The notes beneath the pieces are model-generated. The model ran no database searches. It was not told where the DNA came from and was given only the letters and a program-made list of their open reading frames with translations. DNA of 27,630 nucleotides from a virus, in IMG/VR virus record IMGVR_UViG_3300022747_000266, positions 1-27,630 of that record, one strand, 5' to 3'. This document shows, piece after piece, positions 2,947 to 25,852 of the stretch. The translations under genes and the position numbers were made by a program. Positions within the stretch are counted from its first letter, which is position 1; every line of letters starts with the position of its first letter.

Positions 2947-2968
2947 TCTGAACCTGATTTTTGTAACC

Positions 2969-3003: not shown

Positions 3004-3013
3004 GGAGAAATGA

Positions 3014-3397: not shown

Positions 3398-3858
3398 AGC
3401 CGATTGAATTCATCGCATTGATCGGCTCCTCTGCGCAGGCAACGGCCAAGCGCTCGGGCGTGTTCGCCAGCATCACGATCGCGCAGGCAGCGCTGGAGTC
3501 CGGTTGGGGTGAGTCTGGTCTGGCCAAGGTGGGGAAGAACCTCTTTGGCATCAAGGCCGACAGCCGCTGGAGGGGGGAGACCTTGATCCTTCAGACCAAG
3601 GAATTCATCCGTGGCCAGTGGGTTGTGGTGCCTGCCAAGTGGCGCAAATACGCCAGCTGGCAAGAGAGCATTGATGACCACGCAGCCTTCCTCAAGCAAA
3701 ACCCGCGCTATCAACCATGCTTCCAATGTCTGACGGCTGAGGCATTTGTACAAGCGCTGGCCAAGGCTGGGTATGCCACTGATCCGGGTTACGCCAGCAA
3801 GGTCATCGGGCTCATGAATCAGCACAAGTTACAAGCGCTGGATGGAGGTGCTCCATGA
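3394..3858 (+). CDS. GH73-type N-acetylglucosaminidase endolysin
   Basis: 154 aa and almost entirely one domain. The motif AALESGWGES (E35 is the probable catalytic acid) and NLFGIK (about residues 49-54) are hallmarks of the FlgJ/GH73 glucosaminidase family; YASWQESIDDHAAFL and the YA-S-K-V-I region near the C-terminus also fit. It should cleave the glycan backbone of peptidoglycan. No signal peptide is seen, which agrees with release through a holin. The start overlaps the holin-like gene and the stop overlaps the Rz gene, giving a compact holin-endolysin-spanin cassette. Confidence 0.88.
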   Translation: MKPIEFIALIGSSAQATAKRSGVFASITIAQAALESGWGESGLAKVGKNLFGIKADSRWRGETLILQTKEFIRGQWVVVPAKWRKYASWQESIDDHAAFLKQNPRYQPCFQCLTAEAFVQALAKAGYATDPGYASKVIGLMNQHKLQALDGGAP

Positions 3859-4467: not shown

Positions 4468-7400
4468 CTACTTTACCAACTCCAATAGCTTTCCGAAATC
4501 GTTCACTACGTCATATTTGACATTCTCGGGGGCAAAGCGCCGATTCATTTCATCGAAGAACTTTCTGGCACATTTGATTTTCGTTTTTTCTATCTCTCGC
4601 AAATCCATTGATGACATAGATCCTTTTGTTTCGGCCACAAAGTAGATGTGTTTCACTGTTCCTTCTTTGAACGATATTGCCCAGTCTGGGTTGTAGTCAC
4701 CAACTGGGGTTGGTATCAAGAAGCCGCGCGGTAACTTGGCGTACACAACGACTTCGTTGCTGGCCTCCAACGCCTCAGCAAAATCGCGCTCCGGCCTCGA
4801 ACCGGAATCAGGTAGCACGAAGTCGTAGATGTGATGCTTGGGCGTTTTGACCGCGTAGCTGAAGTCCTGTTTGGTTTGTCCAGCCGTAAAGATGTCGAGG
4901 TCAAACTTGTCCTCGACTGGATCGTAGGCAAGGTGCTCGATGATGACGGTAGCCTTCTGCTCGTTGATCAGGCGAATCGCCTCGGCAATGAAGCTTTCCG
5001 GGTTGGTCTTGAACTGCGCGAATACGGCAGTGTTGAGTCCCTTCAGAATTTCGGTCACCGTGCGGCGTGTCAGGTGGGTGCCTTCAGAAAGCTTACCGAT
5101 CAGGTCGTACTTGACTGCTGAATGGATTGAGACACGGTTAGTTTCCGTTTCAGAGTCTTTCAATTCGAACGCCTTGCCGCCTTTGATCCCGTCGTAGGTC
5201 ACGGCGGCTGCCTGTTCACCGTGTTGGATGGTGTACTGCAACGGGCTCACACGAAGTCCAACATCTTTGTCGTTGAGAGACTTGATCGCTTTCTGAACCA
5301 GTTCGTTGGAATTAAAGTCAACGCTATATGCTGCTTTACGGTTGATTCGATTCCAAAGTTCCTTGAATTCCTGCTTCTCGAAGTTGGCGTTGAGTGGGTT
5401 CTTCTTCGGCTTGCGGTCGTCGCCAATTTCAGGCAACTGGCTCTCGCTGAAGACGCTGTCGATCAGCTTAAAGACCTGCTCAGCATGCGGTGCCAACTCG
5501 GGGGGCAATATTGCCAGCGCACCGTCCTTCTTGGCCTCGTGGTAAGTGCTTGTGATGCGATCAGCGTCGTCGGTGTAGTCGTGCTTGAGCAGGTATTTGT
5601 AGACCTGCTTGGCTAGCTGAGGCGTGACCTCGACATCGCCAGATTCCGACTTCAGTACCTTGCCGGTGAAATAAGCCTCGTCCGCAACGCGCGGACGTGC
5701 CGACAGCGACTCGCTGATGTCTTTCTGCAGCGCCGCGACAAAGTCTTTATAGCTCTCGCTGGCCACCACCGTCAGGACGTTCACGTCATGTACCGTGGCC
5801 GGGTGATCCATCCTGTCGCCGCTTTGGTTGACGGACAGACGCAAGCCACGTCCAACCTCCTGACGACGGGAAATCGTGTTGTCACTGTGCTTGAGCGCGC
5901 AAATTACGAACACGTTCGGGTTGTCCCAGCCTTCACGCAGGGCCGAGTGGGAGAAGATGAAGCGTACCGGCTCGGCGAATGATAGCAATCGTTCCTTGTC
6001 CTTCAGGATCAAGTCGTAGGCGTCCACATCGTCTGAAAGCCCCGCGTTTTCGCCGCGCCCCGCGACAGTAGGATCGGCCAGACGTTTACTTTTCTTGTCG
6101 ATGGAGAAGTAGCCGCTGTGAGTCTTGTCGACAGAAATGCCTTTTAGGTACTTGATGTACGGCGTCTCGTCGAGATCCAGTAGCTCATTAAGGTAGAGCT
6201 GGTACTCCTCTTCGAAGATGCGGGCGTATTCGCCTTTCTCATCTGGCGCGCCGTAATCGCGGTATTTGACCACTTCGTCGATGAAGTAGAGCGTGAGCAC
6301 CTTCACGCCTTGTTGGTACAGCGTCTGTTCCTTGTCGAAGTGCGCCTTGATGGCCTCGCGGATCTGAATACGGCGCAGCGCTGCCTCAGTCACATCACCG
6401 GTCGCATCCCCGACGGTGAGTTCAACGCCATTTGTGAAGCTCAGGGTGTCAGAGTTAGCATTGATGTCGGCTACTACAAAGCCATCTCGATACTGATCCA
6501 GGCCGTTCGACAGGTCGAAGAGGTTATCGCCTTTGGATAGCTTCCTCACTATGCGCTTTATGCTCCCTCCCGCCAACTTCTGCTCGAACTCGACACGCGC
6601 CTCGGGAGGTTTCTTGCTCGATATTTCGATGGTCTGCAGGTATAGATAGCCCGCTGTGCCAGCCAACCCTTTCACCGCGATGCCGCGTACCGCGATCTTC
6701 TTCACTAGTTTCTGGTTATAGGCGTCTAGGGCATCGAGGCGGTGAATTTTGTTATGAGCGGTTTTATGGGTGGCCGAGTAGCGCAACACCATCAATGCCT
6801 TGAACTCCTCCAATGACTTCAGCGTTGCCGCACCTTCCATCTTCTGCGGCTCATCCAGAATCAGGATGGGGCGGTTGGCGCTGATCACGTCGATGGGCTT
6901 GCGTGACTGGAAGTCATCGAGCACGTCATAAATGCGGCGATTGTCGGCTCCTCGTGCGGCGAAGGCCTGAACGTTGATCACCATCACGTTGATGCCCGCA
7001 TCCGACGAGAAACTTTCCAAGTGGTGAAGCTGCTTTGAGTTGTAAATGAAGAAGCGTGCTTTCTTGTGGTAAGTCTCAAGAAAATGCTCAGCAGTGATTT
7101 GCAGCGACTTGGCCACACCTTCACGGATGGCAATGCTGGGCACCACGATGATGAATTTGCTCCAGCCGTACTGCTTATTTAGCTCGAAAATTGTTTTGAT
7201 GTAGCAATAGGTCTTTCCAGTACCCGTTTCCATCTCGATGTCGAGATTGATCTTCGATACCTTGGTCTTGACCACCGAATCCGAGAGCGGCAAATTCTGT
7301 GCTCGTTGGACGTCGTGGATGTTGGTGAGCAGTACCGAATCTGACAGCACCAGATCAGCGTTCTTGAAACCGTCTCCTCCAAACAGATCCTCTACGCCTT

Positions 7401-7530
7401 GTCGAGCCTTGCCAGGATCAATTCGATAAGTCATAGCTTCAGCGGAAGCAGTAGGCTGCCCCTGGAAGCAGTCCACAACTGCTTGAACCGCAGCTGTCTG
7501 GTAGGCCTGCGTTTTGAATTTCAATTTCAT
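4468..7530 (-). CDS. Type III restriction enzyme Res subunit (helicase-nuclease)
   Basis: 1,020 aa, full length for Res. Walker A is METGTGKT (residues 100-107); the helicase motif II is LDEPQKM, the DEPQ/DEPH form seen in type III Res. A late helicase motif is seen in [12 protein letters not shown]. The C-terminal nuclease has the PD-(D/E)XK pattern NPDW...AETKG (P948-D949, E967, K969). The protein should translocate or switch on DNA when two unmodified sites are recognised and cut nearby, together with Mod. AGAGGA lies eight bases before the ATG. It is the last gene of the six-gene minus-strand operon, 31 bp after the accessory gene. All catalytic motifs are intact. Confidence 0.92.
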
Positions 7531-7561
7531 TACTGCATTCCTCTCAGCGCATCCGATTTAT

Positions 7562-8233
7562 TCATTGATTAACCTTCATCATGAGATGATTCCTGAAATA
7601 CTCTATCGACACCACCTCTTGATCAGAGTCGGAAAATTCAACGTACAACTCAATTGACCCTCTGATCTCCATTTCAGAGACTGCATATTGTTTCTTTGGA
7701 GTTGGCCTGATAAAAACAAATTTTTCAACTGGCTTCAAAAAGTGAAGTACAAGCCATACATCTTCTGTTGGATGGTTCTCGGAATATTTAAGCTTGTCCG
7801 GCCGCACCCAGTACGTTGTCCCACGCATGAATTCTGTGCCGGTAACTTCTACGAGCAAAAGAATCCTTCCGCCATCCCGAAGTTTTACCTCAAGATCAGG
7901 TTTGCCTGATTCCGTTGGATGCCCTGAAATGAATTCATTCGTATCTGCGCCAAATCCGACTATTTCAACAAAAACCCGATTGTCAAAACTTTCGATGAGC
8001 GCCTTCACCTTTCCCAAGCGAATCTTTTCTTTGTCCCATGCGCTCTGACCATATGCATGCTTCCAATGATGACTCTCAAGTTCCTTTATTTGCTCGCAAG
8101 AGATGGATTGGCCAACCTTAAGATTGAGGGCGGGAAATGTGCGTGAGCGAATGCTTGTGCAGTAATCGCCGTCAACAAAGATCCAGTAACGCTCGCGATC
8201 AGCTTTGAATTCAATACGCGTGATTGTTGGCAT
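7562..8233 (-). CDS. Probable PD-(D/E)XK nuclease-like protein between mod and res
   Basis: 223 aa, family not recognised. Residues 5-53 (ERYWIFVDGDY...ALNLKVGQSIS...IKELE) resemble the N-terminal portion of RecX-type proteins. Residues 66-165 read like a restriction-endonuclease fold: a helix (WDKEKIRLGKVKALIESF), KPDLEVK (D113), a hydrophobic strand with LLLVEVTGTE (E129, then T131 where the usual lysine would be), a helix and a second hydrophobic strand (DVWLVLHFL). This suggests a PD-(D/E)XK-like protein, possibly with altered chemistry. AGGGG lies about six bases before the ATG. It is 16 bp after mod and 31 bp before res, so it belongs to the operon. Its composition is more AT-rich than res. 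The function is inferred, not established. Confidence 0.6.
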   Translation of the reverse strand: MPTITRIEFKADRERYWIFVDGDYCTSIRSRTFPALNLKVGQSISCEQIKELESHHWKHAYGQSAWDKEKIRLGKVKALIESFDNRVFVEIVGFGADTNEFISGHPTESGKPDLEVKLRDGGRILLLVEVTGTEFMRGTTYWVRPDKLKYSENHPTEDVWLVLHFLKPVEKFVFIRPTPKKQYAVSEMEIRGSIELYVEFSDSDQEVVSIEYFRNHLMMKVNQ

Positions 8234-8249
8234 GAATATCCCCTTGATC

Positions 8250-10145
8250 TCAGATCACTTTGACGTCGGTTTCTGGCGAAATCACTCTCAAGATTTGCTC
8301 TGCATTAATCTTTGCAGCATCATCTTTGAAGCCGCGATCTCTAAACACAACCCTGAGCGGGCGGCTTTTGCCAAGCTCCTTGATAAACGCGTCGTCGATT
8401 TTTCCATTGCTATCGAAGCATGCTACTAGAGTATTTCCATCTGCGAAGAGGCACTCCACCCCGTTGATTGTTTGTTTGGAGATTGGTAGCCCGAGGTCCA
8501 CGCCCCAATCAAGCATCACCTGGAAGAGTAGGTCTTCCGCATTTCTGTCAGATTTGACGTTGTCTACAAATAGATCGAGGCTGGTGGTGCTAATTGCGTC
8601 GGGTGTGTAATAGACATCAGCCATATTTGTCGAGTCCACTTTCAAAACTCGAAAACCAATGTCTTTATTCCATTCCTTGCAAGTGTTCTCCATCGAAATT
8701 TTCTTTCCGACTCGGCGAATTCTTTCTTTGCTTATATCTGCAATGGTCTGAAATCCATCTTTTTTCGCTTGGCTTCTGGCCTCACATTCCTCTGGAATTT
8801 GAATTAGTATGAAGCGGACATTAGAGCCATTTTTTGCATTCATCGCCAAAACTGCGTGCGCGGTTGTTGCCGATCCTGCAAAGAAGTCGAGGACGATGTC
8901 CCCATCTACCAATTGGCATTGAGATGCGAGGGATGAAACAAGTTGCGTAGACTTTGGGTGAGGAAATAGCTTCGCACCAAAAATGTCTTGGAGTTCGCGC
9001 GTTCCTTGTGTGTTTGCTGGTGCAACCAATGAATTCGAGATCTTGTCTTCTGGTCGAGAAACAATCCAAGTGGAAACAGGAACCGTGTCAAACTTCGCTT
9101 CATTTTTGAAGCGTTTAAGCATTGGCCTACCATTGGCCGTTGCGGGAAAAATTACTCTACCCTCTGAGATTTTTTCGGCCATTGTTTTTCGACTGTACGG
9201 CCAGTATCTTCCTGCCGGAGGCAGAAATTGATTTCCAGTTTTCGGGTCAGTTATTGGATAATGAACGTCACCACCAGCTTTTCCGGCGCTTAAATTATCT
9301 GCTTTCCAAGGGCCCCGGGGATCGTTGTCCGGATTGGCGTACCCGTCATAAGTGCGCTCTATTCCTGCAAGTCTCCCTTTTGATTTTCCGTAACACAAAA
9401 CGTACTCATGATCTACGCTGGTGTTGTCTACGGAGTCCATCGCGCCGCTCCTTCTTTTCCAAATGAAGGTGCAGTAATAGTTTTGCGATCCAAATATTTC
9501 GTCGCAAAGTGCCTTTAAGTTACTGGCCTCAAAGTCATCTATTGAGATAAAAATAATCCCATCATCTCGTAGTAGATTCTTTGCAAGTCGTAGCCGAGCA
9601 AACATCATGCTTAGCCAGTCAGAATGGAATCGTCCATTGGACTCTGTATTTGCTACGAGTCGATTACCAGCCTGATCGATTTGCTTTGAACTCTCGAAAT
9701 AGGATGCGCTGTCTTCCGCGAAATCATCTTCATAAATGAAATCGCTGCCGGTGTTGTATGGCGGGTCGATGTATATCATCTTGACTTTGCCAAGATAGTT
9801 TTCCTGCAGCAACTTCAAAGCATCAAGGTTGTCGCCCTCGATGAATAAATTCTTAGTGGTGTCAAAGTCCACACTTTCAGTGCGACAGGGCCGCAACGTT
9901 TTGGCGATAGGTGCGTTAGCTGTGAGCAGTGCCTCACGCTTACCTGGCCAATTCAATTGATAACGTTCTTGTGGTCCTTCGACGATTGAGTCAGTCAGTT
10001 CTTGACGCAATTGATCAAAGTCCACGGTCAACTTTAAGCTGCCGTCTTCACTTTTGCCTTCCTTTACGCAACTAGGGAACAGCTCGCGAATACGGACGAT
10101 GTTGTCTTGCGTCAGATTTGGTGAATGCATTTTCAGTTTGTCCAT
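8250..10145 (-). CDS. Type III-like adenine-specific DNA methyltransferase (Mod)
   Basis: 631 aa. The motif order is that of beta-class N6-adenine methyltransferases: the catalytic motif IV DPPY (residues 127-130, in IYIDPPYNTGSDF) precedes the AdoMet-binding motif I DFFAGSATT (420-428). The middle region (about 230-400) should hold the target recognition domain, and the N-terminal 100 residues (LFIEGDNLDALKLL just before motif IV) match type III Mod proteins. It should methylate the host's recognition sites and guide Res. GGGA lies about seven bases before the ATG at 10145. It is the fourth gene of the operon, 38 bp after DUF4391. The recognition sequence cannot be read from the protein. Confidence 0.92.
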   Translation of the reverse strand: MDKLKMHSPNLTQDNIVRIRELFPSCVKEGKSEDGSLKLTVDFDQLRQELTDSIVEGPQERYQLNWPGKREALLTANAPIAKTLRPCRTESVDFDTTKNLFIEGDNLDALKLLQENYLGKVKMIYIDPPYNTGSDFIYEDDFAEDSASYFESSKQIDQAGNRLVANTESNGRFHSDWLSMMFARLRLAKNLLRDDGIIFISIDDFEASNLKALCDEIFGSQNYYCTFIWKRRSGAMDSVDNTSVDHEYVLCYGKSKGRLAGIERTYDGYANPDNDPRGPWKADNLSAGKAGGDVHYPITDPKTGNQFLPPAGRYWPYSRKTMAEKISEGRVIFPATANGRPMLKRFKNEAKFDTVPVSTWIVSRPEDKISNSLVAPANTQGTRELQDIFGAKLFPHPKSTQLVSSLASQCQLVDGDIVLDFFAGSATTAHAVLAMNAKNGSNVRFILIQIPEECEARSQAKKDGFQTIADISKERIRRVGKKISMENTCKEWNKDIGFRVLKVDSTNMADVYYTPDAISTTSLDLFVDNVKSDRNAEDLLFQVMLDWGVDLGLPISKQTINGVECLFADGNTLVACFDSNGKIDDAFIKELGKSRPLRVVFRDRGFKDDAAKINAEQILRVISPETDVKVI

Positions 10146-10183
10146 TTATATTCCCATGCTTTCTGAGCTCTTAATCTCGAAAT

Positions 10184-10885
10184 TCAGCTGCTCAATTGTT
10201 CAAATTCGGCTTTTAACTGACGCAAAGTTGCATTAATCTCAACCTTGCGGTTGAATTGTTTTTCCTGAGCCAGTCGTATTTGTATTTTTTCTATTTCTCG
10301 ACGCTTTGCAATCGCTAGCTCTACGCGCGTGATCCAATCGGGCAAGGCTTCTTGCGGATGCGCTGACATCGGCAGCAGGCTTTGCAGCATGGCAGCGTAC
10401 AACTGGGTCATATCGAGTGCCAGTGGCATTGCAATGCGAGCAGTGACGGCTGGAGTCCAATCGGTGGCGAAATAGTCGGAGACCACCCAGCGGTTGGCGT
10501 CAGTCTCGCTTGGTCGTTTGTAAGCCGCCACCATTTGCGTTTTCGCTTGATTGCCCTGTCCTTGGTTCAGTTCAAACAGGATCGGAAACTTCACAGCGTC
10601 ATCTATGCAGCGCAATACTTCTTCGTGTAATTCGGTTGATTTGAGCTGAATGCTAAAAATCTGAATCTCCGGCACACCGGGCCGCGCAAGCAAGTTGATC
10701 GTCTCTGGAGCAAGCTTGTATTGCCAGACAATCTGCTCCACTTGTTCGACAAACAAATTTTTTAAACGAGTGTTGGCTCCGCTGTACTCGTAGATCTTGT
10801 TCTTGGGCAAAACACGCCCCAAAGCTGCCTGCTTGGGATACGCGAATAGTTTTGGTTGCTGTTGTGTGCTTGCGCGTTGAATCAT
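10184..10885 (-). CDS. DUF4391 domain protein of the restriction-modification island
   Basis: 233 aa. The text YPKQAALGRVLPKNKIYEY, the beta-rich middle with EIQIFSIQLK, and YFATDWTP...RIAMPLALD match my memory of DUF4391 proteins. The last 55 residues are charged (about 178-231) and likely form a coiled coil. The family has no known activity; members recur beside site-specific methyltransferases and SNF2-type helicases, as here. AGGAGG stands five bases before the ATG. The ATG overlaps the helicase stop (ATGA), so the two are translationally coupled. It may be a bridging or structural subunit; that is inference. Confidence 0.78.
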   Translation of the reverse strand: MIQRASTQQQPKLFAYPKQAALGRVLPKNKIYEYSGANTRLKNLFVEQVEQIVWQYKLAPETINLLARPGVPEIQIFSIQLKSTELHEEVLRCIDDAVKFPILFELNQGQGNQAKTQMVAAYKRPSETDANRWVVSDYFATDWTPAVTARIAMPLALDMTQLYAAMLQSLLPMSAHPQEALPDWITRVELAIAKRREIEKIQIRLAQEKQFNRKVEINATLRQLKAEFEQLSS

Positions 10886-13800
10886 CCAGCCTCCTGAATC
10901 ACGAGGAAGCTGATGAGCTCGAAGTCATTCAGCCCTGAGATTGAGTCGGTCAGCGCCGTAGTCTTGCCAGAGGAAAATAGACTGTCCAAATCCTTTTCTT
11001 CCTTCACCTCAATCATTGAGCGAATTGATTTGCTCAGCAGGTCTGAGTACATCTGCATCATGCGACCATTAGCCGTTTCTTGATTGAAGAGCTGACACAC
11101 ATCAGCATCTGGCATGTCCTGGCCTTTGCAGCATGTGCGCACCAGATCAAGCAAGCGCTTGACCTCGGTGTGGTTGTGAATGACGTCGCCCTCGCGGCTG
11201 ATGTAGACGAGGTAGAACGGGTGTAGGCGGTTGTGCTGGTTCAGGCTGCTTCCCGCGTTTCGATTACGCAGCGTGAAAATGGCACCTGGACGCAGCCCCA
11301 TCTCGGGTCTGGCGGAAACTACTGCGTGCATTCCGTTGGGCACATTGCTCATTTCTCCGTGAGTTTTGACGTAGTTGAGCAAATCCATACGAAAGTCATT
11401 CAAGCCCAAGTCAGTGATCGAGACCCCAGTCTTCAAATCCTCTAACTCGATGACTTCTTCCTGCAGACGACGCAGTTGTTCTTTGCGGTACGACACGTCA
11501 TTCGCTTGCGCAGACAATACGTTGTCGTCTCCAGTTGCCGTGACGTCGGCGATCATCATTCGACTCTCGACGCGTTCCTTGAGATTGATGTACTCGTCAA
11601 GCGAAATATCGGGCCAATAGTTGACAAGCTGAATGCTGCTGTTGGGCGAGCCGATGCGATCCACCCGACCAAAGCGCTGGATGATGCGTACCGGATTCCA
11701 GTGGATGTCGTAGTTAATCAGATAATCGCAGTCCTGCAGGTTTTGGCCTTCGGAGATGCAGTCGGTGCCAATCAGTAGATCCACCTCGTCCGGTTCGTCC
11801 GGCAGTATCACAGCCTTCTCTTTAGAGCGGGGGGAGAACAGGGTCAGGAGCTCTTGGAAATCGTAGTTTCGCTTCTGAGTTTTGCTCTTGATGGTTGACT
11901 GCGGCGCTCCCTTGCCAGTCACCTTTGCGCTGTGGATGGCGAGTTTGGCCAGTAACTCCGGCGCAAGGTTTGCATACAGGTAATCTGCGGTGTCCGCAAA
12001 GGCAGTGAAGATCAGCACCTTTCTGTTACCAGGGTTGATCGGTTTCTCTATCTTGCCGAGCAGTTGAGCCTTGAGGTGCTGCAACTTTGCGTCGTCCTGC
12101 GGCGTGATCTTGTTCATCGAATCCAACAGCGCATCGATGACCTGTAAGTCCACCTTGAGTTCATGCTCCCAGGACGGCAAGTCCATGTCGGCGAGGCTGA
12201 TTTTTATCTTGTTTCCGATCTCGCCGCTCTCGTCGCCGGGCATCGAGAGATCATCATCTTCGGCATCCAACCCCTCTAGCACTTCGGTGAGATCGTCTAC
12301 CGTAAACGTGCCGCCTGAATGATTGAACGCTTCGATCTTTGCAAGTGTGGATTCGTTGTTGGCGCGCAGCGATTGCAGCGTGAGCCGAAAGGACTGTACC
12401 GAGCTTTCAAGGCGCTTGAGCAGGTTAACCGTCATCAGGGCCTGCAAGCTTTTTTCGCGGTCGGCTTGACGTAGGGTTCCTTTGCTCCCCACCTTGGTGT
12501 CGTAGATTGCCTCGTACTTCTTTAGACGACTGGGCAGTATGTAGCTGATGGGCGCATATACAGCCAGCTTGAGCATGGAGAGCTGCTCGAAGATTTCGTT
12601 GAAGCCCAGTACGTCCGACCGCTCAGTTAGCGGACAGTGGAACGACAGCGGCTTTCGGCGCTCTGGAAATTGGCCTATGTCTTTGGTGTCGTAGAAGGTC
12701 TGGATATGCTTACGTGACCGCGCGATGGTGACGCTATCAAGCAGTTCGAAGAAGTCGAAGTCCAGTGAATCAAGGATCGCTCGCGCGGTACGTTCTTCCG
12801 GGGGGAGCTTAGACCAGGAATTGAAGGCTGCTTGGGCACCACGAAAAATCTCTTCGACGCTCCTGTCTGTGCGCAGCTTCTTTGTGAGTTTTTCGGAGTC
12901 GCCCTCATAGGCCAGGGCAAGTTGGTTACGCAAGTCAGTAAAGCGGTTGTTGACTGGGGTGGCCGACAACATCAGAACCTTGGTCTTGACGCCTTCTTGG
13001 ATCACCTTACGCATTAGCTTTTGGTAACGCGTTTCCTTGTCCTTATAGGCATCGTTGTTGCGGAAGTTGTGCGACTCGTCGATGACTACCAGGTCGTAGT
13101 TGCCCCAGTTGATCCGGTTCAGCGGTGTACCAAAGGACTCACCACTGGTGCGGGAGAGATCCGTGTGGCAAAGGACGTCGTAGTTGAACCGGTCGCGGGC
13201 GAAGATATTGGTCTTGAGGTTGCGGTTGTAATTGAGCCAGTTGTCAGCGAGTTTTTTTGGGCAGAGCACCAGCACCGAGCGGTTGCGTAATTCGTAATAC
13301 TTGACGACGGCTAGTGCTGTGAAGGTCTTGCCCAAGCCGACACTGTCCGCAAGAATGCAACCACTGTAGGTTTCCAGTTTGTTGATGATTCCGGTGGCGG
13401 CATCTTTTTGGTAATTGAAGAGCTTGTTCCAGATCAGAGTGTCCTTGTAACCGGTGCGGTCGTTGGGCAGAACGTCTTCGTTGATGTCGTCGAGGAACTC
13501 GTTGAAGATGTTGTAAAGCATCAAGAAGTAGATGCTTTCGGGAGAGTTCTCCTGATAGACCGAGGCGATGTGCTCGCAAATCTGCTCCGTCACATCCTCC
13601 AGCTTCTCCGGATCGTTCCAGATCTGATCGAACAGGCTCAGGTAGGTGGCCGCAAAGGGAGCCTCATCCATTTTGTTGACGAGGTTGGAGACTGCATTGC
13701 CTTGTTGGTATCCGAGATCGACAGCGGTGAACCCGTGCAGAGGCATGTAAGCGGTGTCGGTTCCGTTTGCTTGGACGCAGGCAAACTGCTGCATTGGCGC

Positions 13801-14172
13801 TTTGGTGCGATTGCTCCGGAACTTGGCCTTTCTGCGTATCCAGTCGGCACACTCTTTGGCCACCGCCCGCTGGGTGAGCTTGTTGCGAAGCTGGATTTCA
13901 AATTCACTGCCGTAGAGACTGCGCTCGCGATCCAGCTTGGGGATGTGGAATTCCTTACGCTCCTTGCGTATCTTGTCAGTAACTTCGTTGGCTACAAATG
14001 TAGGTGAGGTGAAGACGAAGTTAAGCTCCTCGATTTTCTCCAGCTCGGCTTTTAACGCTTCAAAGGCATACATCGAAAAGCACGAAGCTGCGACCTTCAG
14101 ACGCGCACCTGGCGTGAGTGCTTGCTTGAGATCGTCGCCTAGTAAACGACTGATGTTGTCGAGTAGCTCCAT
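10882..14172 (-). CDS. SNF2-type helicase with PLD-like N-terminal domain
   Basis: 1,096 aa. The N-terminal part (about residues 25-170) has the look of a phospholipase D-like domain (KVAASCFSMYAFEALKAEL ... FVFTSPTF), but I see no clear HxKxxxxD motif, so that domain may be degenerate. The SNF2/superfamily 2 core follows: Walker A GLGKT (279-283), DESH (365-368), SATPVNN, and a C-terminal helicase half with QRFGRVDRIGS. Such proteins occur in DNA-methylation defence islands, where they are thought to move along or remodel DNA. It is the second gene of the operon; its ATG overlaps the upstream stop (TGATG) and its stop overlaps DUF4391. It is distinct from Res, so the operon encodes two helicases. 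Confidence 0.86.
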   Translation of the reverse strand: MELLDNISRLLGDDLKQALTPGARLKVAASCFSMYAFEALKAELEKIEELNFVFTSPTFVANEVTDKIRKERKEFHIPKLDRERSLYGSEFEIQLRNKLTQRAVAKECADWIRRKAKFRSNRTKAPMQQFACVQANGTDTAYMPLHGFTAVDLGYQQGNAVSNLVNKMDEAPFAATYLSLFDQIWNDPEKLEDVTEQICEHIASVYQENSPESIYFLMLYNIFNEFLDDINEDVLPNDRTGYKDTLIWNKLFNYQKDAATGIINKLETYSGCILADSVGLGKTFTALAVVKYYELRNRSVLVLCPKKLADNWLNYNRNLKTNIFARDRFNYDVLCHTDLSRTSGESFGTPLNRINWGNYDLVVIDESHNFRNNDAYKDKETRYQKLMRKVIQEGVKTKVLMLSATPVNNRFTDLRNQLALAYEGDSEKLTKKLRTDRSVEEIFRGAQAAFNSWSKLPPEERTARAILDSLDFDFFELLDSVTIARSRKHIQTFYDTKDIGQFPERRKPLSFHCPLTERSDVLGFNEIFEQLSMLKLAVYAPISYILPSRLKKYEAIYDTKVGSKGTLRQADREKSLQALMTVNLLKRLESSVQSFRLTLQSLRANNESTLAKIEAFNHSGGTFTVDDLTEVLEGLDAEDDDLSMPGDESGEIGNKIKISLADMDLPSWEHELKVDLQVIDALLDSMNKITPQDDAKLQHLKAQLLGKIEKPINPGNRKVLIFTAFADTADYLYANLAPELLAKLAIHSAKVTGKGAPQSTIKSKTQKRNYDFQELLTLFSPRSKEKAVILPDEPDEVDLLIGTDCISEGQNLQDCDYLINYDIHWNPVRIIQRFGRVDRIGSPNSSIQLVNYWPDISLDEYINLKERVESRMMIADVTATGDDNVLSAQANDVSYRKEQLRRLQEEVIELEDLKTGVSITDLGLNDFRMDLLNYVKTHGEMSNVPNGMHAVVSARPEMGLRPGAIFTLRNRNAGSSLNQHNRLHPFYLVYISREGDVIHNHTEVKRLLDLVRTCCKGQDMPDADVCQLFNQETANGRMMQMYSDLLSKSIRSMIEVKEEKDLDSLFSSGKTTALTDSISGLNDFELISFLVIQEAG

Positions 14173-18571: not shown

Positions 18572-19453
18572 TCATTTGTCTAATGCCACTGTTCTCACAA
18601 TGTGCTCGAACTCAACAAGCACATCGGGATGGTTGTGGGAAAGGTATCGAATGACGGCTTCGTTATCCAGCAGCTTGACGAGGTAGCCCTTTGCCAAGAC
18701 AAGATTCAACACATCTTGCCCGTAGGTCTGTTCAACCAGTTTGAACTGACCCTGAATATTGCCCATCTCCCTTTCCATCTTGGCCATTTGCTCTGGCGTC
18801 AAGCCACCAATCTTCTTGGGCTTGACCTCATCAACCAGCAAATGGCTTGGTGTTGCTGCCAGCAAAGCCTGCGCGTAGGACACGGTGATGTTGTTGGTTG
18901 CCACCATCAGCTCTACGCACTCAACCTGCCGAGTTGGTTTGAGTTTTCGGATGACTGCCCCAACGTTGGCCGAAAACTGCTGGTCCTTAAGCAGCTCTGC
19001 TGCCTCAGCGCAGACGCCATCAAGAAGGTTCATTTTCTTGATGATGTGGCTGATGTCCACGCTCAGGGCCTGCGCCAGGCGAGCTGGTGTGACGCCGCGT
19101 TCCACAGCACGACGGATCATGAAGTGCTCTTGGATGGTGGACAGCCGATTGATTCGATTGTTGTAGGTATAGGTTTCATCGTCGGTCGCCACCAGGCAAG
19201 GGGCATCTTTGAAACCGATCTGCTTCATGGCGAATAGCCGAATGTGGCCATCAAGCAAAACATGCATGCCAGTGGTTTTGTCTGGCTTGCCTATGGTCAA
19301 CGGCTCAATCAGACCGACGGCATCAATGGACGACTGAATTTGCTTGAATTTTCTGGAGGTGAGCAGACCTTCTGGAACTTTCCGCGAAGGCAATAGCAAG
19401 TCCAGTGAAATCGTCAACGGATCCGGAACGAAGCCAAGGGGCATTTGTGTCAT
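18572..19453 (-). CDS. ParB-like protein 2, RepB C-terminal domain type
   Basis: 293 aa from the ATG at 19453, which overlaps the ParB 1 stop (ATGA) and has GGAGG nine bases upstream; an ATG at 19474 would add seven residues. The N-terminal ParB-like domain carries DGHIRLFA (residues 68-75), a variant of the GERRxxA nucleotide-binding box. TYTYNNRINRLSTIQEHFMI follows, then an HTH (TPARLAQALSVDISHIIKK). The C-terminal half matches the RepB plasmid-partition C-terminal domain as I recall it. Such proteins bind DNA sites and may use CTP. It lies between ParB 1 and the ATPase in a coupled operon. No ParA partner is present in the window. Confidence 0.85.
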   Translation of the reverse strand: MTQMPLGFVPDPLTISLDLLLPSRKVPEGLLTSRKFKQIQSSIDAVGLIEPLTIGKPDKTTGMHVLLDGHIRLFAMKQIGFKDAPCLVATDDETYTYNNRINRLSTIQEHFMIRRAVERGVTPARLAQALSVDISHIIKKMNLLDGVCAEAAELLKDQQFSANVGAVIRKLKPTRQVECVELMVATNNITVSYAQALLAATPSHLLVDEVKPKKIGGLTPEQMAKMEREMGNIQGQFKLVEQTYGQDVLNLVLAKGYLVKLLDNEAVIRYLSHNHPDVLVEFEHIVRTVALDK

Positions 19454-20352
19454 GCTGCATGTCCTCCGTGCCAAACGCGTTCGGCCAGGTATTTCGGCAG
19501 CGTGTCCAGACCTTCCGCTCGTAGCAGATTGGTGAAGTTTTCGTTGGCCAGCAGCTGGCGCATTGCTTCGACAACAAAGAGAAGTCGCTGCTGAGCAAAC
19601 TCCGCCTTCTTCACCATCAGTTTTTGCCGCTCAACTTCCTTCTGGTAATTGCGAATCAGACTGGATGAGGTCACCTCTTCAGCGGCTTTGCGAGGCGTGC
19701 CTCGAGCGATGGAGCGGCCAAGGGTCCTTCTGCGTTCGATCACACGGCGCGCCTGGATGAGTTGCTTGCCCCGCAGCTTCCCCGACTCATAGGCTTCTTG
19801 CATCGCTGCCTGAATCTCTTTGTCATTGCCAGCCCCTGCAATGGAGAGCGCCGCGTTCAATGGAATGCGGCCACTTTCAACAGCAACCAGCAATCGCTCT
19901 TCTCCATTTTTCAGTAATTGCAGGATGCCGTTCACATAGTCGACACTCAGGCCCGTTTTTTCGGCGATCGATTTTTTGTCATACCCTTGATCTCTGAGTT
20001 GCTCAATGCCCATGAGCAATTCGAGAGGGCGGCACTGCCTACGCGCAATGTTTTCTGCCAAGCTCATGATGAAGGCATCTTCATCACTGACATTGACAAC
20101 CATGGCCGGGATCAAGGCTTCACCTAAGGTCTTGAACGCTTTGAGCCGCCCCTCGCCACAAATGAGTAAGTATTTCCCTTGGCCACTCTCATCTGTTCTG
20201 GGGGTGACGGTGATTGGTTTTTTCAGACCGATGGATTTGATGTTGCCTACGATCTCGTCGAAGACCTTGTTGTTTCGCTCTCTGGGGTTCAAGACCTCAA
20301 TGCGATCGACAGGAATCATCTGAAGATCTGCAGCCGAATGTTCCAAGCTCAT
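19450..20352 (-). CDS. ParB-like protein 1 (ParB/RepB/Spo0J family)
   Basis: 300 aa. The ParB N-terminal domain is clear: CGEGRLKAF (residues 65-73) as the nucleotide-binding box and SLAENIARR (97-105) as the ENxxR motif. An HTH follows (KKSIAEKTGLSVDYVNGILQLL, about 125-146). The C-terminal 90 residues are helical. It differs clearly from ParB 2, so the two are paralogues of different subfamilies and not a recent duplication. AGGAGG stands six bases before the ATG, which overlaps the recombinase stop (ATGA). Proposed role: DNA binding at a site of the element, with ParB 2. The lack of ParA argues against ordinary partition. Confidence 0.87.
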   Translation of the reverse strand: MSLEHSAADLQMIPVDRIEVLNPRERNNKVFDEIVGNIKSIGLKKPITVTPRTDESGQGKYLLICGEGRLKAFKTLGEALIPAMVVNVSDEDAFIMSLAENIARRQCRPLELLMGIEQLRDQGYDKKSIAEKTGLSVDYVNGILQLLKNGEERLLVAVESGRIPLNAALSIAGAGNDKEIQAAMQEAYESGKLRGKQLIQARRVIERRRTLGRSIARGTPRKAAEEVTSSSLIRNYQKEVERQKLMVKKAEFAQQRLLFVVEAMRQLLANENFTNLLRAEGLDTLPKYLAERVWHGGHAA

Positions 20353-21965
20353 GCTGCCCTCCTGATTCGACTGCGTTCTGCCATGCCGTACAGGTAGTCC
20401 AGGTTGTCAAAGCGATAGCTTTCATACTCAAGACCGTTGTGATCTGCCAGACTGACGCGAGCTTGGCCAAAATCCAGTCGTGGCAGCAGGTAGTAGTCCA
20501 GTGGAGCCTGGTTGGTCTCATCCAGCCGCACGGCCACGGTAATGTCGGGAGCCAGGCCAGTGTCAAACCGAACCTTCCAGCGCCTTCGCCCGTTTTCATG
20601 GAGCTGGCAACGTGACAAGACCAGTGATGCGGTGAACTCTTGGTTCACATTCAGCATGTCGGTTGCTGGATCCCGCTGCACTGTGCCACCCAGGTCTGCA
20701 ATCATCCGTTCGGTGTGAGCAATGATGTCCGGATGCAAGCGCCGCAGGTACTGATTGATCTCAAGGAAGCGGTAATCTCGATCCGGGGTGTAGCCCACCG
20801 CCTGGTAGGCACGAATCAGGCTTCCGAATCGGTGTATGTATGCAGACGCCGATGGCATGCCTTCTGTCTCGTCAATGATCAGCCCCGATAAGTAGCCTCG
20901 GTTCTGATAGAGATTTCGCAGCTTCTCGATCAACTCTTCGTTGCTGTACCGGTGTGATCTTGCTCGCAGAATCCCCTGGGCGGTGTAGAAAACTTCCGGT
21001 GGCACGATGCCCTCGAACGCCCCCTCTTTCTTGATCCACATGTCTGGTTCATTCGAGACGCGATGCTTCTTGAGCTTGAAGGAGATGCGGTTGTAGACGT
21101 TATTGCCGATGTACTTCTCGTTGGTCAGTACCTCGCGTACTGTTGCACGAGTCCAGTCCCGCTCCAGATCAGTTTGAATGCCCATGGTGTTGAGCCGTTG
21201 GGCAATTTCAAATTCCCGCAACCCATCGTCAATGAACCAGCGATAGATCATGTTGACGTTCTGAATTTCGGGGTCTGGCCCTGGCATCAAGATGACCCGG
21301 TCGGTTTGCAAGCTCTTGTGCTCACCTCGCGAGAGCTCACCTTTGACGGATCCAGTTTGATCAATCAGGACGCGTCGCAGACCATACCCGGCGGGGCCAC
21401 CTTGGCGGTATCCGAGCTCGATGAGTCGGCACTGGCCTGCGAAAACCTTCGCCGACAGTTCTCGGCTGTATTCACCAGCCATGGCACGTTTGACACCCTT
21501 GACGATGGTGGACACCGGCGAGCCGTCGTTTTCGAACTGCTCCGCAACGTACACCACATGGATGTTTTTGCGCTTGCAGATGTATTCGTAATACGCGCTT
21601 TCATCCGCGTCCTGGAATCGTCCCCACCGGCTGACGTCATAAACGAGCACGAGGTTGAAGTCGGCCTGGCCTGACTCGACATCATGGATGAGTTGCTGCA
21701 ATGCCAGTCGCCCACCGATGTTCAGGCCGCTCTTACCCTCGTCGGCATAGGTGCGCACGATCGCAATATTGCGCCGGGCCGCGTACTCACGGATCTTGTC
21801 TGCCTGGTTTTCTGTTGAGTACTGTTGATGTTCAGTGGACATCCGAACGTATTCGGCTGCTTTGACGTTGCTAGGTTGGTCCGTTGCATCGTGGATGGAC
21901 TCTTCTGACTGCATATAACCCGATCGCTTGTTGTTAGTGTTGATGCGCTCGGGCCTGCCATTCAT
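20349..21965 (-). CDS. Large serine recombinase
   Basis: 538 aa from the ATG at 21965; ATG at 21914 (521 aa) is an alternative, and neither has a good ribosome-binding site. The resolvase domain has EYVRMSTEHQ (catalytic Ser43), then VYDVSRWGRFQDADES and the E-Y-S-R-E-L-S segment. The recombinase domain holds GGPAGYGLRR and EVLTNEKYIGNNVYNR. No zinc-ribbon cysteine cluster is visible, and the C-terminal 200 residues, which include FGSLIRAYQAVGYTPDRDYR, are particular to this family. It probably integrates or excises an element and heads the recombinase-ParB-ParB-ATPase set. Translation is coupled to ParB 1. Confidence 0.9.
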   Translation of the reverse strand: MNGRPERINTNNKRSGYMQSEESIHDATDQPSNVKAAEYVRMSTEHQQYSTENQADKIREYAARRNIAIVRTYADEGKSGLNIGGRLALQQLIHDVESGQADFNLVLVYDVSRWGRFQDADESAYYEYICKRKNIHVVYVAEQFENDGSPVSTIVKGVKRAMAGEYSRELSAKVFAGQCRLIELGYRQGGPAGYGLRRVLIDQTGSVKGELSRGEHKSLQTDRVILMPGPDPEIQNVNMIYRWFIDDGLREFEIAQRLNTMGIQTDLERDWTRATVREVLTNEKYIGNNVYNRISFKLKKHRVSNEPDMWIKKEGAFEGIVPPEVFYTAQGILRARSHRYSNEELIEKLRNLYQNRGYLSGLIIDETEGMPSASAYIHRFGSLIRAYQAVGYTPDRDYRFLEINQYLRRLHPDIIAHTERMIADLGGTVQRDPATDMLNVNQEFTASLVLSRCQLHENGRRRWKVRFDTGLAPDITVAVRLDETNQAPLDYYLLPRLDFGQARVSLADHNGLEYESYRFDNLDYLYGMAERSRIRRAA

Positions 21966-22087: not shown

Positions 22088-22504
22088 TCAAGTCCTATCT
22101 TTGCAAGCGTCATCTTTGCAGGGGCAGTCTGCGCAAACGGGCGTGATCTCAACGATCCACGCGTCTGTCTTTGCAAGCCCACTGGCAGGCACTGACTTGA
22201 TGCGATAAAGGCCTTCCAGGGTTGGTGGGGGTGCAGATGGCGACCGCTGCATGGCCCTGTTGCGCTCGGCATAGTCCGGGTTTTCATCGCGATACCTGCG
22301 CCAATAATCCGGGTTGCGCTCTTGCCAGGCTTTCTGCGACCGAGCTTTGTTCTCTCGGTAGTCTGGATCGGCCTGCAGCTTTTCGAGGTGCCAGCGTTGC
22401 CGCCGTGCTTTTTGGCATGCCGGGTCAGCGCAGAAGGTCTGACTGGGCACTTGGGGACGAGGTTGGAACGGGGAACCGCAGTTGGCGCAAAGCTTTTCGG
22501 GCAT
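22088..22504 (-). CDS. Cysteine-rich protein upstream of the recombinase
   Basis: 138 aa from the ATG at 22504 (a TTG just before it is less likely); GGAGA lies about six bases upstream. The N-terminus has a likely zinc-binding C-x2-C...C-x4-C (C6, C9, C25, C30) and the C-terminus has a second cluster (CADCPC...C). Between them are three copies of an (N/D)PDY-containing unit rich in Arg, Lys and Trp, which suggests DNA binding. I recall similar proteins beside this kind of recombinase, function unknown. It is 122 bp upstream of the recombinase on the same strand, so it may be co-transcribed. No enzymatic motif is seen. Confidence 0.72.
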   Translation of the reverse strand: MPEKLCANCGSPFQPRPQVPSQTFCADPACQKARRQRWHLEKLQADPDYRENKARSQKAWQERNPDYWRRYRDENPDYAERNRAMQRSPSAPPPTLEGLYRIKSVPASGLAKTDAWIVEITPVCADCPCKDDACKDRT

Positions 22505-22512
22505 CAAATGTC

Positions 22513-22533
22513 TCCATACAAAAGTTGTATGGA
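22513..22533. promoter_or_regulatory. Perfect inverted repeat before the cysteine-rich gene
   Basis: A 9-bp perfect inverted repeat (TCCATACAA and TTGTATGGA, 3-base spacer) covers 22513-22533. It starts nine bases upstream of the minus-strand start at 22504 and overlaps the ribosome-binding region. It is a good candidate for an operator controlling the recombinase operon, or for an RNA hairpin that hides the ribosome-binding site. There is no T-run, so a terminator is unlikely. Confidence 0.6.
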
Positions 22534-22620: not shown

Positions 22621-22737
22621 ATGAAACTCATGAGTTTCATTTAATCCTGCTATCAGGAACCTGTAGGTTTCGGGGTATTTGCATTATTGGAACCCATAGG
22701 TTAAGATGGCGGCATTAAAACGTTACCTGTAGGTTCC
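22621..22737. promoter_or_regulatory. Four dyad sites spaced exactly 33 bp, upstream of mobile mystery protein A
   Basis: Four dyad sequences lie at 22621-22640, 22656-22671, 22689-22704 and 22722-22737. Their centres are 22630.5, 22663.5, 22696.5 and 22729.5, so each is 33 bp from the next (about three helical turns). The first is a perfect 20-bp palindrome (half ATGAAACTCA). The other three follow GGAACC-N4-GGTTCC with one or two mismatches. The last ends at the base before the ATG at 22738. Spacer sequences differ, so the phasing is not just tandem duplication. Likely operator for the HTH protein encoded next. Confidence 0.85.
22679..22707 (+). promoter_or_regulatory. Possible promoter of mobile mystery protein A
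   Basis: A -35-like TTGCAT (22679-22684) and a -10-like TAAGAT (22702-22707) are 17 bases apart. The third dyad (22689-22704) covers the spacer and overlaps the -10, and the last dyad lies in the predicted leader, including a weak AGG ribosome-binding site before the ATG. Binding would therefore repress. The boxes are weak matches. Confidence 0.4.
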
Positions 22738-23196
22738 ATGGAAAACCAATTCCGCGATCTTCAGCTCCAGCAAATGGACGCACTTCTTGCCACTTGGAAG
22801 GCTGCGCAATTGAGCGCACGCCCCAGGTCTGGATGGGTGCGCGCGATTCGTGAGTCCCTGGGCATGTCCGCCGCAGCCTTTGCTCGTCGTCTGGGCATGT
22901 CCCATGCCGGTGTCCGCAAGCTGGAAAATGCAGAGGCGTCAGATGTCATCACGTTGGCCAGCCTGCGCAAGTTGGCTGAGGCGTTGGATTGCGAACTGCA
23001 ATATGCCTTGGTGCCTCGTACCAGCCTGTCGCAGCATGTGAAAGAACGAGCCGAGTCAGTGGCGCGGGAGCGCTTGCGCCCGATTGCCCATTCAATGGCA
23101 TTGGAGGATCAGGCTGTCCAAGGGCCATTGACCAAGCTGCAACTGGAGCTGGCCATCAAGGAGTTGCTCGAAGGTTCGCGTCGGGAACTGTGGTGA
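22738..23196 (+). CDS. Mobile mystery protein A (XRE-type HTH)
   Basis: 152 aa, the usual size. Residues 39-63 form the HTH (AIRESLGMSAAAFARRLGMSHAGVRKLENAE), followed by a segment LRKLAEALDCELQYALVP that I associate with this family (TIGR02612, from memory). These HTH proteins were named for their presence in mobile elements together with the Fic-domain protein B, encoded 10 bp downstream here. A and B may form a toxin-antitoxin-like pair with A as repressor or antitoxin; this is inference. The ATG immediately follows a dyad operator, and only a weak ribosome-binding site (AGGTT) is visible, which favours autoregulation. Confidence 0.88.
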   Translation: MENQFRDLQLQQMDALLATWKAAQLSARPRSGWVRAIRESLGMSAAAFARRLGMSHAGVRKLENAEASDVITLASLRKLAEALDCELQYALVPRTSLSQHVKERAESVARERLRPIAHSMALEDQAVQGPLTKLQLELAIKELLEGSRRELW

Positions 23197-24656: not shown

Positions 24657-24694
24657 GATTTGATTGCATCTGTCCACAGTTGAAAAAAGGGAGC
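24657..24694 (+). pseudogene. Degraded copy of the 3' end of the Fic gene
   Basis: This 38-bp stretch aligns without gaps to 23768-23805 with 30 identical bases, including 13 in a row at the left end. Both copies end in the same frame: DLIAFARS-stop in the Fic gene, DLIASVHS-stop here. Before it, a short open stretch (about 24600-24656) shows only faint similarity. It suggests an old duplication, or replacement of one Fic-linked cargo by another; nothing is expressed as a protein here. Confidence 0.62.
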
Positions 24695-24697
24695 CAT

Positions 24698-25852
24698 ATG
24701 CCAAGCGGATTGCCAAGCGCACAAGCATTGCTGGAAGACAAGAGCGTTGGCTTCTTTTCCATCGATACGGACGTAATTCAGAGCCATGCGTACAAATTTT
24801 CCGCCGGTGCGTTACGTGCATTGCCACTGCAGAGACCGGCTTGGTTGACCATCCAGCAAACTGAAATTGTTGAGCGGGAAGTCCACGCTCATCGAATGGA
24901 GCCAGTGTCCAAGGTTGCCAAAGAGTTGAATGCGGCAATTGCAAAACTGCAACGCCTATCAGGGCTGAATTTCACCCCTGTCAGTGAACAAGTCAAAGCG
25001 CTTGATTCCGAATCTGTCACCGCTCGCAATTTTTCCAGAGAGTTCAGTGCCTTTGTGGCAAGCCTAGGTGGAGGCGTCCTGCCAATAGCTGGGCCGGATT
25101 TGGCGCGGCAGATGTTTGACCGCTATTTCCAAGAAGCAGCACCATTCGAAGCCAGAAAGAAGTCCGAATTCCCCGATGCTGCCGCGCTTTTGACACTGGA
25201 AAACCATGCCAAGGCAACCCAAAAGCAAGGCATCTTGATCTCGAAGGACGGCGGTTGGACAGATTTCGCCAAGCACAGTGATTGGCTCTACTGTGTGAAA
25301 TCCTTGGATGAATTCGCCGCGCTGTTCAAGTCCACCAATCCGGTGGCAGCGGGCGTGACCGCGAAAGTCAGTGCGGAGCTCTCAAACACCGCCAGCAGTC
25401 TTTCTACGTTGGTACAGGCCGCAGTTGAAAACCATGTCACTGGCGCATATTGGAATGCAGATGATGTTTGGACGGGGTTCTGTCACCGTGTTGAGGCAGA
25501 GGTGGATCAAGCGCACTACCTTGGTCATTCGGTGGACCTGACTGGAATCGGTACATGGTTGGTGGAACATGACCCTACCATTTGCATCATCGAGGTCAGG
25601 GCGACAGTTCAGGTCTCGGTGGACGTGAATGTTGAATTCTTTATATACGACACCATCGACCATGAAGAGCTTAATTTTGGCTCTCTAGAGGTCTCACGCG
25701 ATCATGAAATGGAAGTCGATGTGTTCATTACCTTGCGTGGCGATCTGGAGCATGCGGCTGTTGATGAGCTGGACCCATCAATTGAGCTGGCTGGTGGTGA
25801 GTATGACGTTGAGGTTGGGGAAGTTGAACCTGATTTCGATATGGAGTCATAA
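24698..25852 (+). CDS. PIN-like (DUF4935-type) putative RNase
   Basis: 384 aa from the ATG at 24698, preceded by GGGAG at five bases; a TTG at 24680 is less likely. The first about 205 residues fit a PIN-like nuclease: FSIDTDVIQ (D23), a conserved acidic stretch EIVEREVHAH (E56/E59/E61), SEFPDAAALLTL (D160) and ISKDGGW (D184), the pattern I recall for DUF4935. PIN proteins usually cut RNA, often as toxins. The remaining about 180 residues are of unknown fold, contain short beta-like repeats and end in an acidic tail (EVEPDFDMES). No antitoxin is recognisable next to it; the small gene downstream is a membrane protein. Fairly confident about the PIN domain, not about its target. Confidence 0.68.
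   Translation: MPSGLPSAQALLEDKSVGFFSIDTDVIQSHAYKFSAGALRALPLQRPAWLTIQQTEIVEREVHAHRMEPVSKVAKELNAAIAKLQRLSGLNFTPVSEQVKALDSESVTARNFSREFSAFVASLGGGVLPIAGPDLARQMFDRYFQEAAPFEARKKSEFPDAAALLTLENHAKATQKQGILISKDGGWTDFAKHSDWLYCVKSLDEFAALFKSTNPVAAGVTAKVSAELSNTASSLSTLVQAAVENHVTGAYWNADDVWTGFCHRVEAEVDQAHYLGHSVDLTGIGTWLVEHDPTICIIEVRATVQVSVDVNVEFFIYDTIDHEELNFGSLEVSRDHEMEVDVFITLRGDLEHAAVDELDPSIELAGGEYDVEVGEVEPDFDMES

What the first reader, a model, noticed from the sequence alone, without database searches (positions are those of the whole stretch)
22621..22737. Four dyad operators with exact 33-bp centre spacing
Seen: four dyads centred 33 bp apart, one a perfect 20-bp palindrome with only partial sequence match (10 of 16 core positions) to the other three. 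Spacers differ, so constant spacing is probably selected. 33 bp puts the sites nearly on the same face of the helix. Inference: cooperative binding of the HTH protein, blocking a promoter at 22679-22707 and the ribosome-binding site. The leftmost palindrome may be bound by another protein or be a recombination/segregation site.
Basis: partly seen in the sequence, partly recalled or inferred. Interest (0 to 1): 0.72.

Follow-up and report, generated by a model that had tools for sequence, protein, structure and literature searches.

The report
Evenly spaced repressor sites before Fic operon
Four mirror-image DNA sites exactly 33 bases apart lie in front of a two-gene operon that looks like a bacterial toxin-antitoxin pair; the same 32-33-base ladder recurs in front of this gene pair across many bacterial groups even where the site sequence has changed, which suggests that the spacing itself is under selection.

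Summary
Four dyads are centred at 22630.5, 22663.5, 22696.5 and 22729.5, upstream of a 'mobile mystery protein A' gene (XRE helix-turn-helix, TIGR02612) followed by a Fic gene (protein B, TIGR02613). In 70 non-redundant A genes, an unbiased search gives a best three-dyad spacing of 32 or 33 bp on both sides in 46; shuffles give 0-2 of 70, control windows 1 of 264, other XRE genes 0 of 29, a separate plasmid sample 8 of 11. Operator sequence changes completely between lineages, and its outer half-site covaries with A's recognition helix (partial r 0.41; 0 of 2000 permutations). So the dyads are very probably A's operators and their spacing is conserved. The leftmost palindrome is the best operator of the four, not a foreign site. 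Best reading: cooperative autorepression of an XRE/Fic toxin-antitoxin-like operon. A also carries a near-invariant [S/T]MALE[D/A]Q motif resembling the Fic inhibitory helix, but an AlphaFold fusion did not place it confidently. Evenly spaced XRE operators are known (hipBA 28/39/28 bp; Legionella hipBST 53-bp gaps); one pitch kept across phyla I have not seen described. Binding, repression and toxicity are untested.

The parts
22621..22640 (.). O1, leftmost dyad, perfect 20-bp palindrome, centre 22630.5 (-107 from the start codon of A)
   Evidence: best site in the window with a matrix from relatives only; same position and near-identical sequence in L005-L007
22656..22671 (.). O2, dyad GGAACCTGTAGGTTTC, centre 22663.5 (-74)
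   Evidence: conserved position in relatives
22689..22704 (.). O3, dyad GGAACCCATAGGTTAA, centre 22696.5 (-41), lying in the promoter spacer and touching the -10 box
   Evidence: the most conserved of the four dyads among eight relatives (mean pairwise identity 0.79)
22722..22737 (.). O4, dyad GTTACCTGTAGGTTCC, centre 22729.5 (-8), abutting the ATG and covering the likely ribosome-binding region
22679..22684 (+). putative -35 box TTGCAT
   Evidence: sequence; TTG held at this place in 7 of 8 relatives aligned without gaps; not tested experimentally
22702..22707 (+). putative -10 box TAAGAT, 17-bp spacer
   Evidence: sequence; TA..AT pattern conserved in relatives
22738..23196 (+). mobile mystery protein A, 152 aa, XRE helix-turn-helix protein; recognition helix about residues 55-64
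   Evidence: TIGR02612 148.4 bits over cut-off 122.6; PF01381; model pLDDT 87.2, HTH matches HipB, HigA, 434-type repressors at Z 7-8
23089..23112 (+). codons of the conserved HSMALEDQ motif of A (residues 118-125), like the Fic inhibitory motif [S/T]xxxE[G/N]
   Evidence: M120, L122, E123 invariant in 65 sequences, H118, A121, Q125 at 90% or more; motif definition from PMC5033356 and PMC3667792
23207..23794 (+). mobile mystery protein B, Fic-domain protein, 195 aa, active-site motif HAFPNGNGRHAR (an upstream TTG at 23201 is an alternative start)
   Evidence: TIGR02613 245.8 bits over cut-off 124.4; PF02661; fold of a family member closest to VbhT and FICD

Best explanation
The four dyads are binding sites for dimers of the downstream XRE protein (mobile mystery protein A), arranged as a ladder whose 32-33-bp pitch is held by selection. 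A, alone or with the Fic partner B, fills the ladder cooperatively and represses its own operon: O3 sits between the -35 and -10 boxes, O4 covers the start of the transcript and the ribosome-binding region, and O1 and O2 extend the array upstream to sharpen the response. A is also the likely antitoxin for B. Shown here: the sites, their spacing, family-wide conservation of the spacing, and covariation of operator with recognition helix. Inferred: binding, cooperativity, repression, B as co-repressor, and antitoxin function.
For: Spacing: 46 of 70 non-redundant upstream regions have their best dyad triple at 32 or 33 bp on both sides, against 0-2 of 70 in ten shuffles and 1 of 264 control windows from the same loci. 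15 of 22 protein clusters at 60% identity contain such an array. Separate plasmid sample 8 of 11, including Ti-type, Vibrio, Shewanella and Bradyrhizobium plasmids. In chained arrays there are 98 steps of 33 and 40 of 32 bp; 29 loci have three dyads, 24 four, two five (those chains were built allowing only 32 or 33). Other XRE genes: 0 of 29 at 32/33, 4 of 29 at 27/28. Operator identity: outer half-site distance tracks recognition-helix distance after controlling for the rest of the protein (partial r 0.41, 0 of 2000 permutations), while the rest of the HTH does not (-0.05); the highest-ranked single residues include 58, 61, 56, 55, 57 and 60, with 47 the exception. Geometry: dyads at -107/-74/-41/-8 without indels in relatives, with a TTG..TAnnAT promoter frame around O3.
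Against: No binding or expression data exist here. 24 of 70 loci fail the strict test, some perhaps through wrong start codons or weak sites. The Mantel permutation does not fully remove shared ancestry. 33 bp is not an exact number of turns at 10.5 bp. The promoter position relative to the dyads is clear only in the near relatives; across all arrays the best sigma-70 match scatters. The AlphaFold fusion of A and B did not place the putative inhibitory motif with confidence.
Confidence: 0.78

Rival explanations
1. The sites are A operators, but the spacing is kept by the promoter and start-codon geometry (each site must block a fixed step) and not by protein-protein contact, so binding is independent.
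For: O3 and O4 sit at fixed places relative to the -10 box and ATG in near relatives.
Against: O1 and O2 lie outside the core promoter yet keep the same pitch; the distance of the last dyad from the assumed ATG varies between families (about -4 to -63) while the pitch does not.
Confidence: 0.15
2. The leftmost palindrome is a site of another regulator or a recombination or partition site, and only O2-O4 belong to A.
For: It is the most perfect palindrome, matches O2 at only 10 of 16 positions, and is missing in some relatives (L008, L013).
Against: Near-identical dyads occur at the same and at internal positions in L005-L007 and L025; best score in the window with a matrix from other species; in phase with the other three.
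Confidence: 0.04
3. A refinement of the best explanation: the array is a protein-bridged structure in which B, bound to A, joins A dimers on neighbouring operators (as HipA has been proposed to do for HipB, from memory), so the 32-33-bp pitch is set by the size of an A-B complex and repression depends on the A:B ratio.
For: A and B are nearly always adjacent (a B match downstream of A in 77 of 80 loci); A's HTH resembles HipB; hipB-type arrays have their own pitch of 27-28 bp.
Against: No complex structure; L061 has the array but no B detected downstream, and A alone could make the contacts.
Confidence: 0.35
4. Chance or repeat-driven similarity: the dyads arose by recent duplication and the 33-bp spacing is inherited, not selected.
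For: Near relatives share ancestry.
Against: The same pitch with unrelated operator sequences in lineages whose A proteins share under 50% identity; spacers are less conserved than the operators they separate; shuffles and control windows.
Confidence: 0.03

Closest known systems
Escherichia coli hipBA operator array (HipB, XRE antitoxin)
   Same: XRE antitoxin gene first, enzyme toxin second, four dyad operators upstream. Centres measured here at -125.5, -97.5, -58.5, -30.5 from the hipB ATG. A's HTH fold matches HipB at Z 7-8.
   Different: Spacing 28/39/28 bp, not a uniform 33; operator TATCCN8GGATA; toxin is a kinase (HipA), not Fic.
Legionella pneumophila hipBST operators (PMC10653801)
   Same: Three evenly spaced XRE operators upstream of a toxin-antitoxin operon, spacing conserved across the genus, HipB binding shown by gel shift.
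   Different: 53-bp inter-operator gaps; the operator sequence is itself conserved within one genus; different toxin.
VbhTA and EcFicTA, class I Fic toxin-antitoxin modules
   Same: Small antitoxin gene directly upstream of the Fic gene; best structural match of the A-B fusion model is VbhT from its complex with VbhA (Z 17.4); A has an [S/T]xxxE motif.
   Different: A has an XRE DNA-binding domain and is about 150 aa; the residue after the glutamate is D or A, not G or N; the Fic motif has N in place of D/E; no operator ladder was found described for EcFicA in the passages read.
Predicted Xre-Fic/Doc pairs (PMC2701414)
   Same: An Xre-type gene next to a Fic/Doc gene is listed there as a recurrent pair, 22 occurrences.
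   Different: No operators or mechanism described in the passages read; 'mystery' does not occur in that text.

Membership tests
mobile mystery protein A (TIGR02612) | whole-protein score over the curated cut-off | tested here: met
   148.4 bits against 122.6
mobile mystery protein B (TIGR02613) | whole-protein score over the curated cut-off, gene next to A | tested here: met
   245.8 bits against 124.4; 10-bp gap A to B
autoregulatory operator array of an XRE antitoxin (hipBA-like, as a kind) | several dyad operators of one kind upstream of the XRE gene, overlapping its promoter | tested here: met
autoregulatory operator array of an XRE antitoxin (hipBA-like, as a kind) | the XRE protein binds the operators and represses | not testable with these tools
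   needs footprinting and reporter fusions; only covariation supports it
HipB operators proper | TATCCN8GGATA operators with the hipBA spacing | tested here: not met
   operator core is AAC(C/T)NNTA(G/A)GGTT-like with 33-bp pitch; hipBA measures 28/39/28
class I Fic toxin-antitoxin (VbhTA, EcFicTA) | antitoxin encoded directly upstream of Fic | tested here: met
   (gene order only)
class I Fic toxin-antitoxin (VbhTA, EcFicTA) | inhibitory motif [S/T]xxxE[G/N] in the antitoxin | tested here: not met
   motif is [S/T]MALE[D/A]Q: S/T and E kept, last residue D or A in place of G or N
class I Fic toxin-antitoxin (VbhTA, EcFicTA) | Fic signature HxFx[D/E]GNGRxxR | tested here: not met
   B has HAFPNGNGRHAR; N at the D/E position in all members where the motif was recognised, both arginines kept
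class I Fic toxin-antitoxin (VbhTA, EcFicTA) | inhibitory helix of the antitoxin docks at the Fic active site | tested here: inconclusive
   A-B read-through fusion of L068 folded at pLDDT 90, but the motif region lies in the 54-75 blocks and no coordinates could be measured
class I Fic toxin-antitoxin (VbhTA, EcFicTA) | B toxic alone, neutralised by A | not testable with these tools
   needs expression in a laboratory strain

The most novel reading that the evidence does not exclude
A whole family of XRE/Fic operons uses a fixed-pitch (32-33 bp) operator ladder as a molecular ruler. The pitch is set by the A or A-B complex and stays fixed while DNA sequence specificity evolves freely through the recognition helix, so that array geometry, not operator sequence, is the conserved part of the regulatory code.
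Probability: 0.45. Interest if true: 0.65.

Novelty: new variant of a known kind. Interest (0 to 1): 0.52.

Why it matters
It gives a mechanism-level handle on a family that NCBI still calls 'mobile mystery proteins' and that sits on Ti and other plasmids and beside defence genes. The geometry is conserved while the operator sequence turns over, which makes two things testable with simple constructs: whether spacing is set by a protein ruler, and how recognition-helix changes are matched by operator changes. It also allows operators, and probably specificity residues, to be predicted for each member from sequence alone.

Tried and rejected
Foreign-site reading of the leftmost palindrome: rejected on relatives and matrix score. 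A regulon elsewhere: no further strong site in the window (next 9.98 bits). A 14-base pattern with 2 mismatches in three genomes gave counts near the reversed-pattern control (30 v 18, 88 v 59, 98 v 112), so it was too loose to decide. Sigma-70 scan over all arrays: the offset to the nearest dyad scatters, so promoter geometry is claimed only for near relatives. First hipB-family control ignored strand; repeated with correct strand. Structure of A-B: the fusion model did not settle docking of the HSMALEDQ motif; some A rows were misaligned by 11-22 residues into B in that alignment. No solved structure of A or B: only weak matches to 434-type repressors, an MBF1-like protein and HigA3, and to FICD and other Fic proteins. 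One search printed its table but ended in a file-writing error; the analysis was redone. Papers: 'mobile mystery protein' occurs in four open-access papers, whose titles are genome or expression studies and which I did not read.

Full report
WHAT IS THERE. Upstream of the gene at 22738-23196 lie four dyads, centred at 22630.5, 22663.5, 22696.5 and 22729.5, exactly 33 bp apart. They have 10, 7, 6 and 6 complementary pairs out of 10. The summed symmetry, 29, is the highest for any equally spaced run of four in the window (best unrelated run 24); forty Markov-1 sequences of the same length reach at most 26. The gene is mobile mystery protein A (TIGR02612, an XRE helix-turn-helix protein), followed after 10 bp by mobile mystery protein B (TIGR02613, Fic domain). 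A plausible promoter, TTGCAT 22679-22684 and TAAGAT 22702-22707 with a 17-bp spacer, has O3 in its spacer; O4 abuts the ATG.

SAME SITES IN RELATIVES. Eighty loci encoding A were fetched. In near relatives (Burkholderiales and other Betaproteobacteria) the dyads stand at -107, -74, -41 and -8 from the ATG, with occasional 1-bp shifts. In eight of these aligned without gaps, operators are more conserved (mean pairwise identity 0.54, 0.64, 0.79, 0.65) than the spacer that follows each (0.38, 0.54, 0.52 for the three spacers) and than DNA further upstream (0.26-0.27). O1 is absent in L008 and L013, so the three proximal dyads are the core. O1 of the window is GAAACTCATGAGTTTC; L025 has GAAACTCATGAGTTAC as its middle dyad, and L005 and L007 have GAAACTCATAGGTTTC at the O1 place. 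A matrix built without the window, L002 and L003 puts the window's four dyads first to fourth in 27.6 kb, O1 first. So O1 is an ordinary member of the array.

SPACING IS THE CONSERVED THING. For each upstream region I took the best triple of 16-bp sites (mutual similarity in either orientation plus symmetry) with the two spacings free between 22 and 45 bp. In 46 of 70 non-redundant regions both spacings were 32 or 33, which is 4 of 576 possible combinations; ten shuffled sets gave between 0 and 2, and 264 control windows in the same loci gave 1. The earlier run, with slightly different regions, gave 47 of 72. At 60% protein identity the set falls into 22 clusters, 15 of which contain an array. 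Eleven plasmid loci not used to find the rule gave 8 (records). Where arrays were extended, allowing only 32 or 33 bp, there were 98 steps of 33 and 40 of 32; 29 loci have three dyads, 24 four and two five. In 29 other XRE genes of the hipB type the count at 32/33 was 0, while 4 gave 27/28, and E. coli hipBA itself measures 28/39/28. The pitch is therefore particular to this family, and the method can see other pitches.

OPERATOR SEQUENCE IS NOT CONSERVED, BUT FOLLOWS THE PROTEIN. Half-sites differ wholly between lineages (GAAACCTA, TTGCACTA, ACAATTTA, TTCATTTA, TAAAGCCA, ATAAGTTA and others) around a roughly constant centre, CTA|TAG-like. Among 45 loci, distance in the outer half-site correlates with distance at recognition-helix residues 55-58, 60 and 61 after controlling for the rest of the protein (partial r 0.41; 0 of 2000 permutations as high), whereas the remaining HTH residues give -0.05 and the inner core gives -0.04. 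The permutation does not fully correct for shared ancestry, but the contrast between recognition helix and the rest of the HTH is hard to explain unless A binds these dyads.

WHAT THE OPERON PROBABLY IS. B is a Fic protein; the A-B fusion model of a family member (L068) matches VbhT, solved with its antitoxin VbhA, best (Z 17.4), then FICD. B also matches PADLOC candidate-defence models PDC-S04 and SoFic. A's HTH resembles HipB, HigA and 434-type repressors. Outside the HTH the outstanding conserved stretch of A is H-[S/T]-M-A-L-E-[D/A]-Q, with M, L and E invariant in 65 sequences. Class I Fic antitoxins inhibit through an [S/T]xxxE[G/N] helix whose glutamate pairs with the second arginine of the Fic motif (PMC5033356; PMC3667792). 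A keeps the S/T and the E, B keeps both arginines, and most B sequences have no such motif of their own. The last motif position (D or A) and the N in B's HxFxNGNGR depart from the strict class I definition, so I do not file the pair as class I FicTA; I say it probably works like one. The read-through fusion of A and B from L068 folded well overall, but the motif region was of low confidence, so docking is open.

MECHANISM. Shown: sites, pitch, conservation, covariation, promoter overlap. Inferred: dimers of A bind each dyad, neighbours touch (directly or through B) at 32-33 bp, about three helical turns, and a filled ladder blocks RNA polymerase at O3 and promoter escape or translation at O4. 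Whether B is a co-repressor, and whether the A:B ratio tunes repression, cannot be told from sequence. That the pitch is 32 or 33 but rarely anything else fits a protein contact with little slack.

NOVELTY. Evenly spaced XRE operator arrays are known: hipBA, and hipBST of Legionella with three sites and 53-bp gaps (PMC10653801). In the open-access papers searched I found no description of operators for mobile mystery proteins; subscription papers were not searched. The new element is one pitch held across bacterial phyla while the operator sequence and the recognition helix change together.

Noticed in passing
window 22513-22533: A separate inverted repeat, TCCATACAAAAGTTGTATGGA, sits just upstream of the minus-strand ORF 22088-22507; it is not part of the 33-bp ladder and may be that gene's own operator.
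   Followed up: no
window 523-4352: Left end carries a phage tail tip J-like protein (PF13550, PF24801) and a glucosaminidase (PF01832), so the record looks like a prophage end joined to an island.
   Followed up: partly
window 4468-14172, minus strand: Defence-like block: type III restriction enzyme and methyltransferase, a DUF4391 protein, and an SNF2/HKD helicase matching PADLOC C3a139.
   Followed up: partly
window 18572-21965, minus strand: Large serine recombinase (20349-21965) beside a ParB-family protein (19450-20352) and a second ParB-like ORF (18572-19474).
   Followed up: no
window 24680-25852: PIN-domain protein (PF16289) downstream of the Fic gene.
   Followed up: no
L082, L084, L085, L092: Mobile mystery A/B pairs on Vibrio, Shewanella and Rhizobium plasmids lie next to McrBC, Qat, type I restriction, helicase or DUF4297 anti-phage-associated genes.
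   Followed up: partly
L110, L112, L117, L124: Upstream regions of hipB-type XRE genes show three-dyad arrays with 27-28-bp pitch, suggesting that array pitch may be a family signature among XRE regulators.
   Followed up: partly
A proteins of L020, L021, L029 and the L032/L033/L035/L039/L040/L043 group: The conserved motif switches from SMALEDQ to TMALEAQ, the same S/T alternation that the Fic inhibitory motif allows.
   Followed up: partly
L061: A gene with a clear 33/33 array but no Fic partner detected within about 3 kb downstream.
   Followed up: no
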